Assembly: GCA_016212085.1 (NCBI GenBank)
Contig: JACRHL010000020.1
Coordinates: 1-64,000, forward strand
Direction of reading: 5' to 3'
Source: Nitrospirota bacterium
GTDB taxonomy: Bacteria > Nitrospirota > JACRHL01
Length of the DNA stretch: 64,000 bases
The number at the start of each line of letters is the position of its first letter. Positions within the stretch are counted from its first letter, which is position 1. The translations under genes were made by a program, and so were the position numbers. This document shows positions 4,353 through 52,553 of the stretch, one piece after another. A model generated the notes under the pieces. That model saw only the letters and a list, made by a program, of their open reading frames with translations. It was not told the origin of the DNA and did no database searches.

Positions 4353-6683
4353 ATGTACGACATCAAGGACATCTTCGACGACCACGTCTATCCGAAGCTC
4401 GACCGTCGGGAACTGCTTTCCCCCCTGGAGCCGGAGGACCTGGGCCACGCCTTCCGGGTGAACTGCCCGGAGTGCGGCCGCCACACCGCCGTGATCTCCA
4501 AGGAGGGGCGCTACATCCGCTGCCGCGGGGAGGGCGGCTGCGGCTATGTGGAGGGCATCTGGTCCTACGTGCAGAAGAGCCGGGGCCTGTCGCACACGGA
4601 GACCTTTCTGTATCTGGCGGACCACGTGGACTACGTGGTCACCCACCCCGGCCCCTACGATTTTTCGCGCCTGTTCGCCGCCCAGCGCAAGTCGCTGCTG
4701 CTGGAGGACTTTTTGGCCTGGAGCGGCACCCAGCTGGAAACCGCCGCCGACGCGCTGGAGTACCTTACCAAGCGGCGCGGCTTCACCCTGGCCGCCATCC
4801 GCGAGGTGAAGCTGGGGTACTACCCGTCGCAAAAGGCGGCCCTCACCTATCTGACGGAGCGCGGCTACGGCCGCGACGCCATCGAGGAGGCGGGCCTCTT
4901 CACCAAGGGGCTGGGCGACACCCACCGCCTGGTGACCGGCTACCGCGACCGGGTGGGGCGCCTCACCGGCATCGCCTGCCGCTACGTGGGCGATCCGCCC
5001 GCCGGCACCCCCAAGTACCTGTACAGCTACGGCATCGACAAGAGCACCCCGTACAACCTGCACAAGGCGCGGGACTTCATGGAGCTCATCATCGTCGAGG
5101 GCATCTTCGACGTGCTGTCCATGCGCGTGCACGGCATCGACACGGTGATCGGCGTGGAGGGCGCGCGCCTCACCCGCGAGCAGGTGCGCCAGCTTGCCGG
5201 CTGCGGCATCCGCAAGGTGATCCTGGGCTTCGACCGCGACGACGCCGGCCGCAAGGCCACCGAGGCGGCGCTGGACATCCTGCTCGGCCAGACCGGCATC
5301 CGCTCCTACGTGCTGGAGCTGCCGGAGGGGTATACCCACCCGGACGAACTCATCGAGGACGAAGGGGTCGAGGCGTACTGGGAGCGCATCAAGGGCGCCG
5401 AGCAGGGGGCCGTGTGGAAGGCCCGGCGGCTGCTGTCGCGCTACAGCCTGGACACCGACATCGGCCGCGACGGCGCGTTCCGCGAGGGCATGGGCTTCGA
5501 GGAGACCATCCGCGACCCGGCGGACGGCCAGCACTTCCGCGAAACCCTGGCCGAGGCCCTGGAGATGCCCCTCGACCAGCTTCTGGTCACCCTGCGCACG
5601 GAGCGCGACGTGCAGCTGCGCCGCCACCTGGAGGCGGGCTACCGCGACCTGCTGGACGAGGCGGGGCGGCTGCTCCAGGCGGGGCGCTTCACGCGGCTGC
5701 GCGAGCACCTCCAGAACGGCCTGTACGCCCTGCGCAGCCGCGAGATGGTGCGCCGGGTGCGCTACTTCGACCGCAACGAGTTCCTGGAGCGGGTGAAGGC
5801 CGTGCCGGTGGACGAGGTGGACCTGGGCATCCCCGGCCTCACCCGTCTCGTCAACCTGCGCCGGGGCGACCTGGTGGTGGTGGGCGCCCGCGGCCGCCAC
5901 GGCAAGAGCACGTTCGCCTACAACCTGTTCCTGAACCTGGTGGAGCGCTACCCGGAGGCGCCGTCCCTGTTCTTCGGCTACGAGATCCCGGACCACATCG
6001 CCATGGCGCGGCTGGCCACCATCTGGGCGCGCAAGCACCGGGGCGCCCGCTACGCCTACCGGGACGACGTGATCGCCAACTACCGGGACGGGCGCTTCCC
6101 CAAGGAGGTGTTCGAGGCCTTCAACGGGCTGGGGCAGTACGGGCTGGAGAAGCGCTTCGGCTTCGTCTACCGGCCCGGCTCCACCGTCGACCAGGTGGTG
6201 AGCTACGCCCAGAAGGCCGCCGACGAGCGCGGCAAGGTGGGCGCCGTGCTGGTGGACTACCTGGAGCTGGTGCGCACCGCCACCCTGCGCGACGAGGAGT
6301 TCCGTGCCGCCGAGGTGATGAGCAAGCTGCGCCAGCTGGCCCAGGAGCTGTCCACCCCCGTGTTCGTGTTCACCCTGATGGCCCAGGCCCGGGGCGCGGC
6401 GCAGGAGATCTCCGCCATGGACACGGTGGCGGTGGGCCGCGAGCTGGCGCGCCGCCGGCCGACGCTGGAGGACTTCGTCCACCCGCGCCGCTTGCAGATG
6501 GAGTCGGCCACCGTGCTCGGCATCTACAACCACGAGCGCGAGAAGGACACCTTCCTGCGCGGCGTGGAGCCGCGCGACACGTCGCCCCTCGACGTGTTCG
6601 TGGTGGCCAACCGGGAGGGATCCGCCGGATCCCTCACCCTATCGTTCGACATGAAGAGTGGCTGGATCGGAGAGGAGAAATAG
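4353..6683 (+). CDS. TOPRIM primase fused to DnaB-like helicase (T7 gp4/Twinkle type)
   Basis: A 776-residue fusion. A zinc-ribbon primase domain comes first (C38-X2-C41, C57-X5-C63). A TOPRIM domain follows, with the acidic VEGIFD near residue 248 and FDRDDAGRKA near 292. The C-terminal RecA fold carries Walker A GARGRHGKST near 512 and a Walker B-like segment LVDYLELV near 633, the DnaB/KaiC pattern. Cellular bacteria normally encode DnaG and DnaB separately, so this resembles phage T7 gp4 or mitochondrial Twinkle. No integrase, structural phage gene or shift in base composition is visible nearby. A TAGAAT -10-like box at 4339-4344 lies 8 nt before the ATG. A small basic protein follows 6 nt after the stop. 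Confidence 0.85.
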   Translation: MYDIKDIFDDHVYPKLDRRELLSPLEPEDLGHAFRVNCPECGRHTAVISKEGRYIRCRGEGGCGYVEGIWSYVQKSRGLSHTETFLYLADHVDYVVTHPGPYDFSRLFAAQRKSLLLEDFLAWSGTQLETAADALEYLTKRRGFTLAAIREVKLGYYPSQKAALTYLTERGYGRDAIEEAGLFTKGLGDTHRLVTGYRDRVGRLTGIACRYVGDPPAGTPKYLYSYGIDKSTPYNLHKARDFMELIIVEGIFDVLSMRVHGIDTVIGVEGARLTREQVRQLAGCGIRKVILGFDRDDAGRKATEAALDILLGQTGIRSYVLELPEGYTHPDELIEDEGVEAYWERIKGAEQGAVWKARRLLSRYSLDTDIGRDGAFREGMGFEETIRDPADGQHFRETLAEALEMPLDQLLVTLRTERDVQLRRHLEAGYRDLLDEAGRLLQAGRFTRLREHLQNGLYALRSREMVRRVRYFDRNEFLERVKAVPVDEVDLGIPGLTRLVNLRRGDLVVVGARGRHGKSTFAYNLFLNLVERYPEAPSLFFGYEIPDHIAMARLATIWARKHRGARYAYRDDVIANYRDGRFPKEVFEAFNGLGQYGLEKRFGFVYRPGSTVDQVVSYAQKAADERGKVGAVLVDYLELVRTATLRDEEFRAAEVMSKLRQLAQELSTPVFVFTLMAQARGAAQEISAMDTVAVGRELARRRPTLEDFVHPRRLQMESATVLGIYNHEREKDTFLRGVEPRDTSPLDVFVVANREGSAGSLTLSFDMKSGWIGEEK

Positions 6684-6689
6684 GACCCG

Positions 6690-6968
6690 ATGGCTGAAAC
6701 CGTGGATGAGCTGACCGTTTCCTATTCGGAGGACGGCAGGGAGGTGGTGAAGGAGCTCGACAAGGAGGTCCTGACCAAGGGCGCCTGGGCGACGCTGATG
6801 TTCAAGTATCAGGACATGGACAAGGCCACGGGGGAATACGGCCCCACCAAGGTGACCATCCGCCGCTACAAGAAGATGGGCGGCAGCTACCGCCCCCAGA
6901 GCAAGTTCAACATCTCCGGCGAGAAACAGGCCAAGCAGATCGCCGACGTGCTGAACCGCTGGTTCTAG
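6690..6968 (+). CDS. conserved small protein, possibly PC4-like ssDNA-binding
   Basis: A 92-residue lysine-rich protein with no signal peptide or membrane segment. The central part, from GAWATLMFKYQ through KVTIRRYKK to KFNISGEKQAKQI, reads as a beta-sheet half followed by a C-terminal helix. That layout recalls the PC4/YdbC single-strand DNA-binding fold, but the match is by eye only. It begins 6 nt after the primase-helicase stop codon and is surely co-transcribed, which favours a nucleic-acid role. Its TAG stop forms part of a CTAG that borders a 162-bp inverted-repeat element. Confidence 0.65.
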   Translation: MAETVDELTVSYSEDGREVVKELDKEVLTKGAWATLMFKYQDMDKATGEYGPTKVTIRRYKKMGGSYRPQSKFNISGEKQAKQIADVLNRWF

Positions 6969-7130
6969 CAGGCTGTTGAAAACACCGCTTTTCGGCATGC
7001 CTGCGTCCGGCACAGGGATGTGCCGGCGGATTGCGAGCGCGTAAGCGCCTGGAATCCGGAGGAACCGGAACGCCGCGCGGTTCCGGTTCCGGGTTGAAAA
7101 AATCCAGGGAAGGACTGTTTCAACATCCTG
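6969..7130 (+). repeat. 162-bp palindromic MITE-like element, copy 1
   Basis: The ends CAGGCTGTTGAAA and TTTCAACATCCTG are inverted repeats with one mismatch, flanked on both sides by CTAG (6965-6968 and 7131-7134), which looks like a 4-bp target duplication. Inside are a perfect hairpin CCGGCACA-GGGA-TGTGCCGG and an 11-bp stem GGAACCGGAAC / GTTCCGGTTCC. The same element occurs inverted at 50307-50466. It lies between convergent genes, so its hairpins could also end transcription from both sides. No transposase gene is present. Confidence 0.85.
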
Positions 7131-7170
7131 CTAGCGCCGGGGGGGCCGCCGGGCCGCCCGGCGCGGCGGG

Positions 7171-8769
<1,599 letters not shown>

Positions 8770-48876: not shown

Positions 48877-49860
48877 ATGGGGGGTGAGTTCGATTTCATC
48901 GCCACCATCCGTGCCGGCGCCGCCCGGGCCTCCGGCGCCCTCCGGCTGGGCATCGGCGACGATTGCGCCGTGTGGGCGCCGCCCGCCGGCCACGATCAGC
49001 TGGCGAGCACCGACCTGCTCATCGAGGGCGTGCACTTCGAGCGGGCCACCACCTCCCTGGCCGACCTGGGCCACAAGGCCCTGGCGGTCAACCTGAGCGA
49101 CATCGCCGCCATGGGCGGCACCCCCCGTTACGTGATCCTGGGGCTGGGCATGCCCGGCGACCCCTCCGCTCATGCCGAGCTGGTGAACGGCCTGCTGCGC
49201 CACGCGGCGGAAACCGGCGTGACCCTCATCGGGGGTGACACCTGCGCCAGCCGCGCCGGGTTGCTGATCAGCATCACCGTGCTGGGGGAGGTGCCGGCTG
49301 GCCGCGCCATCCCCCGTGGCGGGGCGCGGCCGGGGGATGCCGTGTACGTGACCGGCACCCTGGGCGACAGCGCCGCCGGCCTGGCGCTGCTGGCGGACGC
49401 CGCCCTGGCGCCGGCGGCGCCCTGGCGCGACGCCCTGATCGGCCGTCACCGCCGCCCCGCCGCGCGCCTGGAATGGGGCCGCCTGCTCGGCGGGGAGCGG
49501 CTGGCCAGCGCCATGATCGACGTGTCCGACGGCCTGCTGGCCGACCTGGGGCATATCCTGGACGAAAGCGGCGTGGGGGCCGAGGTGGCCGCCGAGCGGG
49601 TGCCCATGTCGGACGCGCTGCGCGCCTTCGGCACGGCGATGGGCCGCGACCCGCTGGCGCTGGCGGTGGGGGGTGGCGAGGATTACGAGCTGCTGTTCAC
49701 GGTGCCCCCGGAGCGGGAGGCGGCGCTGGCCCGCCACGTCGCCGCCGGCGAACTGGCGGCCACCGCCATCGGCCGCGTGACCGGGGGGGGCGGCCTGCGG
49801 GTCAGCCGCGACGGGGCGGCCTATGTGCCGCCCCGCGCCGGCTACGAGCATTTTTCATGA
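48877..49860 (+). CDS. thiL: thiamine-monophosphate kinase
   Basis: Phosphorylates thiamine monophosphate to the cofactor. The 327-residue product has the family start GEFDFIATI, the GDDCAV metal site, the STDLLIEGVHF segment, LSDIAAMGGTP and LIGGDT. ATG 48877 has GGAAGGGG upstream. The rest of the thiamine path in this window, thiS-thiG-thiE, is 9 kb downstream. It overlaps the DUF2062 gene by 4 nt. Confidence 0.95.
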   Translation: MGGEFDFIATIRAGAARASGALRLGIGDDCAVWAPPAGHDQLASTDLLIEGVHFERATTSLADLGHKALAVNLSDIAAMGGTPRYVILGLGMPGDPSAHAELVNGLLRHAAETGVTLIGGDTCASRAGLLISITVLGEVPAGRAIPRGGARPGDAVYVTGTLGDSAAGLALLADAALAPAAPWRDALIGRHRRPAARLEWGRLLGGERLASAMIDVSDGLLADLGHILDESGVGAEVAAERVPMSDALRAFGTAMGRDPLALAVGGGEDYELLFTVPPEREAALARHVAAGELAATAIGRVTGGGGLRVSRDGAAYVPPRAGYEHFS

Positions 49861-50306
49861 TCGCCAGCGTGCGCGAGAAGCTGCGCGCCGTCCTCACCCT
49901 GGGTGAAACGCCGCACCAGCTGGGCGTCGCCTTCGGCGTGGGGGTGTTCATCGCCTTGTCGCCGTTGATCGGCCTGCATATCGTGCTGGCCGCCGCCTCC
50001 GCCTGGGCGTTTCGCCTCAACCCCGTGGCGTTGTTTGTCGGGGTGCTGGTCAACAACCCGTGGACGATGGTGCCCCTCTATGCGGCTTGCCTTTGGCTGG
50101 GAACGGCCATCTGGCCCACCGACGCGGTGTGGTCGGACATTGCGTGGCAGGGGCTGACGCTGGTGGACTTCCTGAGTCAGTTCCGGCCCTATCTGATGCC
50201 GTTCGTGGTGGGAACCACCGTGGCGGGCGCGGCCTGCGGCCTGCTTGGATACGTGGTGATGAAGGCCGTGGTGACCGCCTACCGGCGCCAGCGCGGCCGC
50301 GGCTAG
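49857..50306 (+). CDS. DUF2062 membrane protein
   Basis: A 149-residue protein with two or three hydrophobic segments and the DUF2062 pattern: TPHQLGVAFGVGVFIALSPLIGLH near the start and LNPVALFVGVLVNNPWTMVPLYAACLWLG in the centre. Function unknown; some members are fused to glycosyltransferases. ATG overlaps the thiL stop (ATGA). Its TAG stop, within CTAG, directly borders the second copy of the 162-bp repeat. Confidence 0.88.
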   Translation: MIASVREKLRAVLTLGETPHQLGVAFGVGVFIALSPLIGLHIVLAAASAWAFRLNPVALFVGVLVNNPWTMVPLYAACLWLGTAIWPTDAVWSDIAWQGLTLVDFLSQFRPYLMPFVVGTTVAGAACGLLGYVVMKAVVTAYRRQRGRG

Positions 50307-50466
50307 CAGGGGGTTAAAGTCCATCCGTGGCCTTTTTCAACCCGGAACCGAAACATCGCGGTGTTCCGGTTGTTCCGGATTTCAGGCGCTGACGCGCATG
50401 AAATCCGCCGGTACATCCCTGTACCGGACGCAGGCGGGTCAAAAAATGCCGTTTTTAAACAGCCTG
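50307..50466 (-). repeat. 160-bp palindromic MITE-like element, copy 2
   Basis: Read on the minus strand, most of it aligns with 6969-7130: terminal CAGGCTGTTTAAA, GCCTGCGTCCGGTACAGGGATGTACC-type hairpin, and the GGAACACCG stem region. The hairpin CCGGTACA-GGGA-TGTACCGG differs from copy 1 by a paired substitution (C-G to T-A), preserving the fold. CTAG flanks the 50303-50306 side but not the other. It lies between convergent genes, like copy 1. Confidence 0.85.
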
Positions 50467-50477
50467 CCCGGCGCGCG

Positions 50478-52553
50478 TCAGCCGGCGGCGGCGCGGCGCG
50501 CCAGCCAGTCGTTCACCCAGCGCTCCACGCCCAGCAGGCCGCCGCTCAGGGCATCCAGCTCCCGCGCCTCGGCGCCGACCCGCTCCGCCGTCCCGGCGGG
50601 GTCGGCCCCGAGCAGCGGCGCCATGTGGGTGAGCAGGTCGCTAAGCTTGCCCATGAGGTGGCAGGTCATGGCCCACTCGCGGGCGATCTCCGGGTGCGGG
50701 TTGGCGCCCCTCAGCTTTTCCACCAGCCCGGTGAGGGATTCGGTGAAGGCGCCGAAGCGCCCGCCGCCGGCGTGGGTCAGGTAGGCCTCCGCCATTTGCA
50801 GGATGTTGGGCAGGGCGGCCGTGGCCACCCGCGGGCTGACGCCGAACGCCACGCTCACCGCCTCGCGCACGCGATCCAGGCTTTCCTCCTCGTCACCCAG
50901 CGCCAGGGCGGCGCGCGCCAGGCCGAACAGGGTGTTCAGGCGCAACTCGATGCTGATGGTCTGCTCCTGGTAGAGGGCCATGGCGTCGGACAGGGTGTCG
51001 TGGGCGAGCCGGGCGTTGCCCTGGCCCAGGTGGATCTGCCCCAGGAAGGTGGTCGCCTGGGCCGCGAAGGCGCGGTTGCTGGAGCCGCGCAGCAGCGGCA
51101 GCACCTCCTCGAACAGGTTCTGGGCCGTCGCAAGGTCGCCGCCGCGGAAGGCCAGGAGACCCAGGTGGTAGCCGGCGGAGGCGATGCCGCTCTGCTCGCC
51201 CAGCCCGCGGAAGGCGGCCAGCGCCGCCTCCAGCTCGGCCTGGCCCGCCTGGTCGTTGTGGAGGTAGATGTCGAGGATGCCGATGTAGTCGCGGATCAGC
51301 GCCAGCTCGTGGGGCTTGCCCACCTCCAGGGCGGCGGCGCGGCCGACCTCCATCCACGCCAGCCCCTCGGAGAACATGAAGCGGTTGGTGAACAGGTGGA
51401 ACAGCACGAAGCAGTAGTCGAGGATCAGCTCGCAGTCCTCGTCCAGGTCCACGCCGGCCTTTTCCATGCGCGCCACCGCCCAGGTGAAGGCGGCGCGCAG
51501 GTTGGGCCACTCGCGGAGCATGAACTGCATGGCCGGGGTCACGTGGCCCGCGTCCACCTGGTTGCGGCACTCGCGCAGCATCTGGTGCAGGAACACCGCC
51601 GCCTGCTCGCGGAAGGCATCGGCCCGCAGGGGGCCCAGGCGCTCGGCGACGAACCGGCGCAGCGCCGGGTGCAGCGTGTGGCGCTGGTCCGACGCGGCCA
51701 GCAGCCCGGCCTTGCGCAGCCGCGCCAGGGGCTCGGCGGACTCGGACCCGAAGGTGCTGTCCACGGTCTCGGCGGTGGCGCCGCCGGGGAAGGCGTGCAG
51801 CAGCGCCAGCAGGCGCATGGGTTCGTCGCCCAGGCCGTGCAGCGCCACGCCCAGCATGCGCGCAAGGCCGTCGGGCTCGGTGCGTTTTTGCAGCGCCAGC
51901 TCCAGGTCGTCGGTCCAGTTGGGCGGGTGGCACCAGCCGGCGGCCACCTGGATGGCCAGGGGGTTGCCGCCCAGGATGTCCAGGGCGGCGGCCAGGGCCG
52001 GGTCGTCGTCCGCCGGGCGGGCGGAGACGCTCTGCGGCAGGTTGGCCGTGAACACCGCCCGCGTCACCGCCGGGTCCAGCGGGCCCAGCGCCATGGCGGG
52101 GACATCCGCCATGCCGGAGCGGCTCACCACCAGGTGGTGCAGGGTGTCCACGCCGCCCAGTTTGATGTTCAGCGCCTCGGCCACCGCCTCGGGCCGGGTG
52201 GCCAGCAGGGTGTCCATCTGGTCCCAGATGACCAGGATGCGGCGGCCGCCGAGGGATTTATTGAAGTCCTTGGTCTCGTCGAAGCGCAGCAGCAGCACCA
52301 GGTCGCCGATCAGGGTGGCGGGGTGCCCCGCGTCGTCCATGGCGATGTGGAACACCCCGTGGGGAAAGGCGCCGCCCTGGCGCGCCCGGTGCCCCACGGC
52401 GCGCACCAGCTCGGACTTGCCGATGCCGGCGGGCCCGGTGAGCTGGCACACGCGCCCGGCGGTCACCATGCCGAGCAGGCGGTCCAGGTCCGCCTCGCGG
52501 CCGGAGAAGGCGCGGCAGACGGGCAGCAGGTTGTGGGGCGTGTTGTCGTTCAT
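50478..52553 (-). CDS. STAND-type NTPase with C-terminal helical (TPR-like) repeats
   Basis: A 691-residue signalling ATPase. The N-terminus has FSGRE (residues 16-20), Walker A GPAGIGKS (40-47), a Walker B-like segment RRILVIWDQMD (104-114), a sensor VVSRSG, and the GxP motif ILGGNPLAIQVAAG. A winged-helix region follows, then about 350 residues of TPR-like helices (AGYHLGLLAFRGGDLATAQNLFEEVLPLL). No effector or DNA-binding domain is attached at the N-terminus, so it probably acts with a partner. It starts after divergent 75-residue gene; co-function is not shown. Confidence 0.82.
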   Translation of the reverse strand: MNDNTPHNLLPVCRAFSGREADLDRLLGMVTAGRVCQLTGPAGIGKSELVRAVGHRARQGGAFPHGVFHIAMDDAGHPATLIGDLVLLLRFDETKDFNKSLGGRRILVIWDQMDTLLATRPEAVAEALNIKLGGVDTLHHLVVSRSGMADVPAMALGPLDPAVTRAVFTANLPQSVSARPADDDPALAAALDILGGNPLAIQVAAGWCHPPNWTDDLELALQKRTEPDGLARMLGVALHGLGDEPMRLLALLHAFPGGATAETVDSTFGSESAEPLARLRKAGLLAASDQRHTLHPALRRFVAERLGPLRADAFREQAAVFLHQMLRECRNQVDAGHVTPAMQFMLREWPNLRAAFTWAVARMEKAGVDLDEDCELILDYCFVLFHLFTNRFMFSEGLAWMEVGRAAALEVGKPHELALIRDYIGILDIYLHNDQAGQAELEAALAAFRGLGEQSGIASAGYHLGLLAFRGGDLATAQNLFEEVLPLLRGSSNRAFAAQATTFLGQIHLGQGNARLAHDTLSDAMALYQEQTISIELRLNTLFGLARAALALGDEEESLDRVREAVSVAFGVSPRVATAALPNILQMAEAYLTHAGGGRFGAFTESLTGLVEKLRGANPHPEIAREWAMTCHLMGKLSDLLTHMAPLLGADPAGTAERVGAEARELDALSGGLLGVERWVNDWLARRAAAG

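What the first reader, a model, noticed from the sequence alone, without database searches (positions are those of the whole stretch)
6965..7134. Two copies of a 160-bp palindromic element with covarying hairpins and CTAG flanks
The elements at 6969-7130 and 50307-50466 share ends and internal stems. The loop hairpin is CCGGCACA/TGTGCCGG in one and CCGGTACA/TGTACCGG in the other, a compensatory pair change, so RNA or DNA folding is under selection. Copy 1 has CTAG on both sides. Both start at the stop codon TAG of the preceding gene and lie between convergent genes, so they may serve as mobile bidirectional terminators.
Basis: seen in the sequence. Interest (0 to 1): 0.7.

Follow-up and report, generated by a model that had tools for sequence, protein, structure and literature searches.

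The report
Hairpin-rich MITE parked at stop codons
A 162-base non-coding mobile element, present in about 50 copies in this bacterium, carries the ends of IS5-type jumping genes and inserts into the four letters CTAG, which in this genome often contain a gene's stop signal; it is a new family of a known kind, and a role as a transcription terminator is not needed to explain where it sits.

Summary
The two window elements (6969-7130 +, 50307-50466 -) belong to a family with 51 distinct copies or fragments in this 2.70-Mb genome. The family is a MITE of the IS5 group. Its ends, CAGGCTGTTGAAAAA / CAGGATGTTGAAAAAG, match those of autonomous IS5_4-type insertion sequences (DUF772 + DDE transposase). 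Of 106 transposase loci, 92 have such an end pair; of 87 with both flanks readable, 59 have identical 4-bp duplications, mostly CTAG, TTAG or CTAA. A relative (G001) shows the empty site of copy 1: the same convergent gene pair, an unoccupied CTAG at the same stop codon, no element. The host holds no intact cognate transposase, so the family looks orphaned. Hairpin covariation exceeds shuffled controls. The position at stop codons follows from the target: CTAG is 12-fold depleted here, and about a third of the CTAG sites outside coding sequence overlap a stop codon. 23 of 46 copies with a known end have a stop codon in the target duplication. The convergent-gene excess disappears against that null (p = 0.17). 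The U-tract of the terminator-like hairpin is broken in both window copies. "Mobile" is right, "bidirectional terminator" is unproven; a new member of a known kind.

The parts
6965..6968 (.). left target-site copy CTAG; contains the TAG stop codon of the upstream gene
   Evidence: unoccupied CTAG at the same stop codon in relative G001
6969..7130 (+). MITE copy 1 (162 bp)
6969..6983 (+). left terminal inverted repeat CAGGCTGTTGAAAAC
   Evidence: same ends on autonomous IS
7095..7130 (+). right-end hairpin GTTGAAAAA.TCC...GGACTGTTTCAAC plus tail CATCCTG; includes the right terminal repeat; U-tract interrupted in this copy
7007..7026 (+). loop hairpin CCGGCACA-GGGA-TGTGCCGG
7131..7134 (.). right target-site copy CTAG
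50303..50306 (.). target-site copy CTAG beside copy 2, containing the TAG stop of gene 49857-50306
50307..50466 (-). MITE copy 2 (160 bp), reverse orientation; loop hairpin CCGGTACA/TGTACCGG
50467..50470 (.). decayed second target-site copy CCCG (CGGG read with the element)
6690..6968 (+). 92-aa gene (no Pfam hit) whose stop codon is the target
7171..8769 (-). convergent neighbour: peptide chain release factor 3 (Pfam RF3_C, GTP_EFTU)
49857..50306 (+). DUF2062 gene upstream of copy 2
50478..52553 (-). convergent neighbour of copy 2, TPR / AAA-like protein

Best explanation
The element is a non-autonomous IS5-group transposon (MITE) about 163 bp long, made of five hairpins and bounded by imperfect ~15-bp inverted repeats. 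It has no gene. An IS5_4-type DUF772/DDE transposase acting in trans would cut at the CAGG ends and join them to a staggered cut around YTAR (mostly CTAG), leaving a 4-bp duplication (inferred from the ends and duplications, not assayed). CTAG is very rare in this genome outside spacers and stop codons, and an insertion into C|TAG regenerates the stop codon beside the element. Insertions there leave the protein intact and survive, while those inside genes are purged. The stop-codon copy of the duplication is then kept by selection while the other copy decays. The source transposase is now absent, so the copies are relics spread by past activity. Shown: ends, duplications, empty site of copy 1, copy number, target statistics, paired stems. 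Inferred: trans-mobilisation, purging, extinction of the transposase.
For: 51 copies or fragments, none inside a predicted gene. Autonomous IS with the same ends: L109:6239-7777 (CTAG on both sides, 367-aa ORF, NCBIfam IS5_4 266 bits against cut-off 140). In a wider set, 92 of 106 transposase loci have the end pair, and 59 of 87 with both flanks have identical duplications (38 CTAG, 10 TTAG, 9 CTAA). TAG plus the end sequence occurs in 101 of 296 genomes of the phylum; the same pattern read backwards occurs in none. Empty sites: copy 1 in G001, 92-aa ortholog 75% identical, ending TACTAG, then ordinary spacer, then RF3; for copy 2 the same gene order without the element in G002 and G003, exact site not resolved. 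Flanks of 26 G000 copies match more than when reshuffled (65 against 54.5 of 104 positions, p = 0.004). 23 of 46 copies with a known end have a stop codon in the duplication, mostly TAG. CTAG: 108 seen against 1288 expected in 464 kb, 30 at stops, 57 intergenic, 21 coding. E. coli IS5 duplicates YTAR, most often CTAG (PMC5493358, PMC10359306).
Against: No intact cognate transposase in this genome: only a short DUF772 remnant (25.5 bits, C21:52547-52696) without the ends. The genome is 23 contigs, so one could lie in a gap. Only 5 of 26 copies with both flanks still have identical 4-bp duplications. No transposition was observed. Between the element and any autonomous IS only the ends were compared; no internal derivation was traced.
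Confidence: 0.93

Rival explanations
1. Mobile bidirectional transcription terminator, kept by the host after insertion because it ends both convergent transcripts.
For: 18 of 48 copies lie between convergent genes against 41 of 404 spacers (p = 4e-6). The right-end hairpin has A-tract / GC / U-tract order (AAAAAGTCC..GGACTTTTT). Stems covary.
Against: Against usable CTAG sites the convergent excess is not significant (22 of 86, p = 0.17), and 26 copies lie between tandem genes. The U-tract is broken in 7 of 24 copies, including both in the window. The consensus scan finds no terminator in copy 1 and one weak site in copy 2 (the scan is insensitive to this layout). On a poorly resolved tree the terminal/internal split of changes does not differ between stems and loops (p = 0.12).
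Confidence: 0.15
2. mRNA 3'-end stabiliser or processing site (YPAL- or Correia-like): transcribed with the upstream gene, its hairpins alter mRNA decay.
For: Half of the copies with a known end directly follow a stop codon; strong paired stems. YPAL elements are reported to be linked to the transcripts of upstream genes and possibly to affect their stability (PMC2229807).
Against: No expression data here; placement is already explained by the target; no conserved orientation relative to the upstream gene was seen in the table.
Confidence: 0.2
3. REP/BIME-type repeat or IS200/IS605-like element moved by a Y1 (HUH) transposase that reads hairpins.
For: Hairpin-rich, with xTAG tetranucleotides at the foot of the hairpins.
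Against: 4-bp duplications, an empty site with a single CTAG and DDE-type IS with the same ends; Y1 elements make no target duplication (general knowledge) and REPs are 20-40 bp (PMC3733652 abstract).
Confidence: 0.03
4. The covariation comes not from selection on a fold but from template switching within palindromes, which copies a change from one arm to the other.
For: Symmetric double changes occur in single copies, e.g. L009 and L011.
Against: Many compensations are scattered over helices and copies, and stems vary less than loops overall (9.7% against 18.5% of cells).
Confidence: 0.35

Closest known systems
MITEPsy1 of Pseudomonas syringae (PMC3189936)
   Same: Non-autonomous element with ends nearly identical to those of an IS5-family IS (ISPsy2); inserts at CTAG or YTAA with a 4-nt duplication; ends contain TCTGAAAAAGCC, resembling TGTTGAAAAAGTCC here
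   Different: 100 bp, 6 copies, shown to transpose; here 163 bp, five hairpins, about 50 diverged copies, no intact partner in the genome
Chunjie MITE of Geobacter uraniireducens (as described in the review PMC10969869)
   Same: Multi-copy MITE (38 copies, 178-235 bp) with conserved ends and direct repeats
   Different: Its ends and transposase family were not compared here; different host
E. coli IS5 (PMC5493358, PMC10359306)
   Same: YTAR target duplicated, CTAG commonest
   Different: IS5 encodes its transposase; end sequences were not compared here
YPAL of Yersinia (PMC2229807)
   Same: ~168-bp palindromic repeat, intergenic, multi-copy, linked to the transcript of the upstream gene
   Different: Duplications of 3-26 bp, inverted repeats internal rather than terminal; no sequence comparison made here
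Multicopy palindromic sequences of Geobacter genomes (PMC2700814, PMC2996986)
   Same: Families of intergenic palindromic repeats in large numbers
   Different: Those families' sequences are in supplements that could not be opened; no match was shown

Membership tests
MITE of the IS5 family (IS5 group) | Terminal inverted repeats shared with an autonomous IS of the family | tested here: met
   CAGGxTGTTGAAAAA-type ends on 92 of 106 DUF772-DDE transposase loci, and closely matching on L109, L152, L155 and L175-L177
MITE of the IS5 family (IS5 group) | 4-bp YTAR target duplication | tested here: met
   CTAG/CTAG at copy 1; 5 identical and 15 of 26 copies with at least 3 of 4 matching in G000; 59 of 87 identical for autonomous IS; single CTAG at the empty site
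MITE of the IS5 family (IS5 group) | Short, multi-copy, no transposase gene | tested here: met
   163 bp, 51 copies or fragments
MITE of the IS5 family (IS5 group) | Partner transposase belongs to IS5 by curated model | tested here: met
   NCBIfam NF033581 above cut-off for 6 of 7 transposases tested (L166 just below, 124 of 140); IS1182 model below its cut-off for all
Currently mobilised IS5 MITE (usual, not defining) | Intact partner transposase in the same genome | tested here: not met
   none at E <= 0.01 with L109 protein; only a DUF772 fragment
MITE of the IS5 family (IS5 group) | Transposition in the presence of the transposase | not testable with these tools
   needs an assay
Bidirectional intrinsic terminator | GC stem followed by an intact U-tract in each direction | tested here: inconclusive
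   17 of 24 copies keep TTTTT; both window copies do not; scan finds none in copy 1, one weak in copy 2
Bidirectional intrinsic terminator | RNA 3' ends at the element | not testable with these tools
   no transcript data
REP / BIME | 20-40 bp palindrome without target duplication | tested here: not met
   163 bp with 4-bp duplication
Rfam RNA families | Match above gathering score | tested here: not met
   0 matches in the window

The most novel reading that the evidence does not exclude
One IS5-type end sequence has repeatedly taken up unrelated hairpin cassettes. The same CAGG..TGTTGAAAAA ends and YTAR-like duplications enclose entirely different palindromic interiors in this genome, in genus g9 (L049, L056, L087, L098) and elsewhere in the phylum (L115, L119, L124, L133). 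The stems would then be kept because a folded interior helps transposition or shields the host at gene ends, and CTAG-at-stop targeting would be an evolved safe harbour rather than a by-product.
Probability: 0.15. Interest if true: 0.55.

Novelty: new member of a known kind. Interest (0 to 1): 0.3.

Why it matters
It gives a simple rule for why some small repeats sit exactly at stop codons: a transposase that targets CTAG, in a genome where CTAG survives largely in spacers and at TAG stops, lands where the protein is left intact. It also shows how location bias can suggest a regulatory role that the target-site distribution already explains. And it links many unrelated-looking palindromic repeats of one phylum to a single IS5-type end sequence.

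Tried and rejected
A 26-letter core pattern in genome contigs found nothing; no paper in the library prints the end sequence. Rfam: no match. A Y1/REP origin was considered because of the oriented xTAG flanks and rejected on the duplications and the empty site. I considered that mismatched flanks (TTAG/TCAG, CTAG/CCAG) might mean insertion into mismatched DNA. Rejected: in the asymmetric pairs where one flank holds an intact TAG stop codon, that flank keeps TA and the other has drifted, so selection on the stop plus drift explains it. IS1182 membership was rejected because the NCBIfam cut-off is not reached. Private-mutation and tree tests for selection after insertion were inconclusive. The excess of stop-codon insertions over the CTAG null (23 of 46 against 30 of 87) is not significant (p = 0.10).

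Full report
What is there. Copy 1 is 6969-7130 (+), with CTAG immediately on both sides (6965-6968, 7131-7134). Copy 2 is 50307-50466 and runs in the opposite orientation. BLAST with copy 1 finds dozens of further places in the same 2.70-Mb genome, and a profile search resolves 51 non-overlapping copies or fragments; the fuller ones are about 78-90% identical to copy 1. Rfam has no family for it.

Anatomy. The full element is about 163 bp and can be written as five hairpins with terminal inverted repeats CAGGCTGTTGAAAAA (left) and CAGGATGTTGAAAAAG (right). On 24 aligned copies a five-helix structure pairs in 91.0% of cells (shuffled 88.7%), with 16 pairs changed on both sides (shuffled 7.1) and a covariation score of 0.126 (shuffled 0.092); none of 500 shuffles reaches these three, and sliding the partners drops pairing to 31-46%. 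Stems vary less than loops (9.7% against 18.5% of cells). Whether that constraint acted before or after insertion could not be separated, and correction between palindrome arms by template switching remains possible.

What moves it. The end sequence preceded by TAG occurs in 101 of 296 genomes of the phylum, while the same pattern read backwards occurs in none. In a viral-collection contig, L109, the same ends and CTAG on both sides bound a 1.54-kb insertion sequence with a 367-aa DUF772 + DDE transposase; its protein is identical to one on Sinorhizobium meliloti plasmids. The protein scores 266 bits on the IS5_4 model (cut-off 140) and fails the IS1182 cut-off. Homologues occur in 32 of 296 genomes of the phylum and across many phyla. 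Of 106 such loci, 92 have an end pair of this type, and of 87 with both flanks readable 59 have identical 4-bp duplications, chiefly CTAG, TTAG and CTAA. That is the YTAR rule of IS5, whose commonest duplication in E. coli is CTAG (PMC5493358, PMC10359306). The window element is therefore an IS5-group MITE. The host itself has no intact partner.

Empty sites. In G001 (same family, other genus) the primase neighbour, the 92-aa gene and RF3 keep the same order. The 92-aa gene, 75% identical, ends in TACTAG, followed by an ordinary spacer and no element. In our genome the same gene ends TTCTAG, then the element, then a second CTAG. For copy 2 the order AIRS-family gene / DUF2062 / convergent TPR gene is kept in G002 and G003 without the element, but the gene ends have diverged too far to place the exact site. 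Another copy (C14:107393) interrupts a palindrome: joining its flanks gives TGCCGCCCGCACTAGTGCAGGCGGCA.

Why stop codons. A simple codon-model gene caller places 0 of 51 copies inside a predicted gene, and 18 between convergent, 26 between tandem and 4 between divergent genes. In 464 kb of this genome CTAG occurs 108 times against 1288 expected: 30 at stop codons, 57 in spacers, 21 in coding sequence. So about a third of the sites outside coding sequence overlap a stop. 23 of 46 copies with a known end have a stop codon in the duplication (mostly TAG), which is not significantly more than that null (p = 0.10). The convergent excess is strong against all spacers (p = 4e-6) but not against usable CTAG sites (p = 0.17). 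Target choice plus loss of harmful insertions is thus enough to explain the placement. In the asymmetric pairs where one flank holds an intact TAG stop, that flank keeps TA while the other has drifted, as expected if only the stop codon is under selection.

Terminator reading. The right-end hairpin has the order A-tract / GC / loop / GC / T-tract and could work in both directions. But the T-tract is broken in 7 of 24 aligned copies, including both window copies, and the consensus scan gives nothing in copy 1 and one weak site in copy 2. I rate a maintained terminator role at 0.15, and an incidental effect on the mRNA 3' end at 0.2.

Comparison. The nearest described case is MITEPsy1 (CTAG or YTAA target, 4-nt duplication, ISPsy2-like ends, transposition observed; PMC3189936). 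Chunjie in Geobacter is a comparable multi-copy MITE (PMC10969869). YPAL is comparable in size and shape but not in duplication or ends (PMC2229807). The family here is new as a sequence family in the sources searched, but of a known kind.

Wider pattern. Other genomes of the phylum hold elements with the same ends and duplications but different palindromic interiors. This is the most interesting open lead and was only described, not tested.

Noticed in passing
G000 C9:12109-12272 and at least 41 other places (L068:3110-3273): A second, less diverged repeat family of ~165 bp in the same genome; copies often lie next to or within copies of the first family, e.g. around C20:25570-26505 and C23:231973-232140.
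   Followed up: partly
L049, L050, L056-L067, L073-L099 (genus g9), L115, L119, L124, L133 (other genomes of the phylum): Elements with the same CAGG..TGTTGAAAAA ends and xTAG duplications but unrelated palindromic interiors, including common-looking repeats such as CGTCATTCCCG..CGGGAATGACG and CCCTCACCCC..; suggests repeated capture of hairpin cassettes by one end type.
   Followed up: partly
G000, 464 kb sampled: CTAG is depleted about 12-fold (108 against 1288 expected by base composition); 30 of the remaining sites are at stop codons.
   Followed up: yes
G000 C21:52547-52696 (L255): Short DUF772 transposase remnant (25.5 bits) without the element's ends; possible trace of a lost IS.
   Followed up: partly
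G000 C23:92747-93074 (L045): Two copies in tandem that appear to share one flank (TCAG), i.e. insertion of one element beside another.
   Followed up: no
L109:6239-7777: Full-length IS5-type element with CTAG duplication whose left end falls at the end of an ORF (5614-6249) that looks like a glycosyltransferase, in a viral-collection contig; transposase identical to S. meliloti plasmid copies.
   Followed up: no
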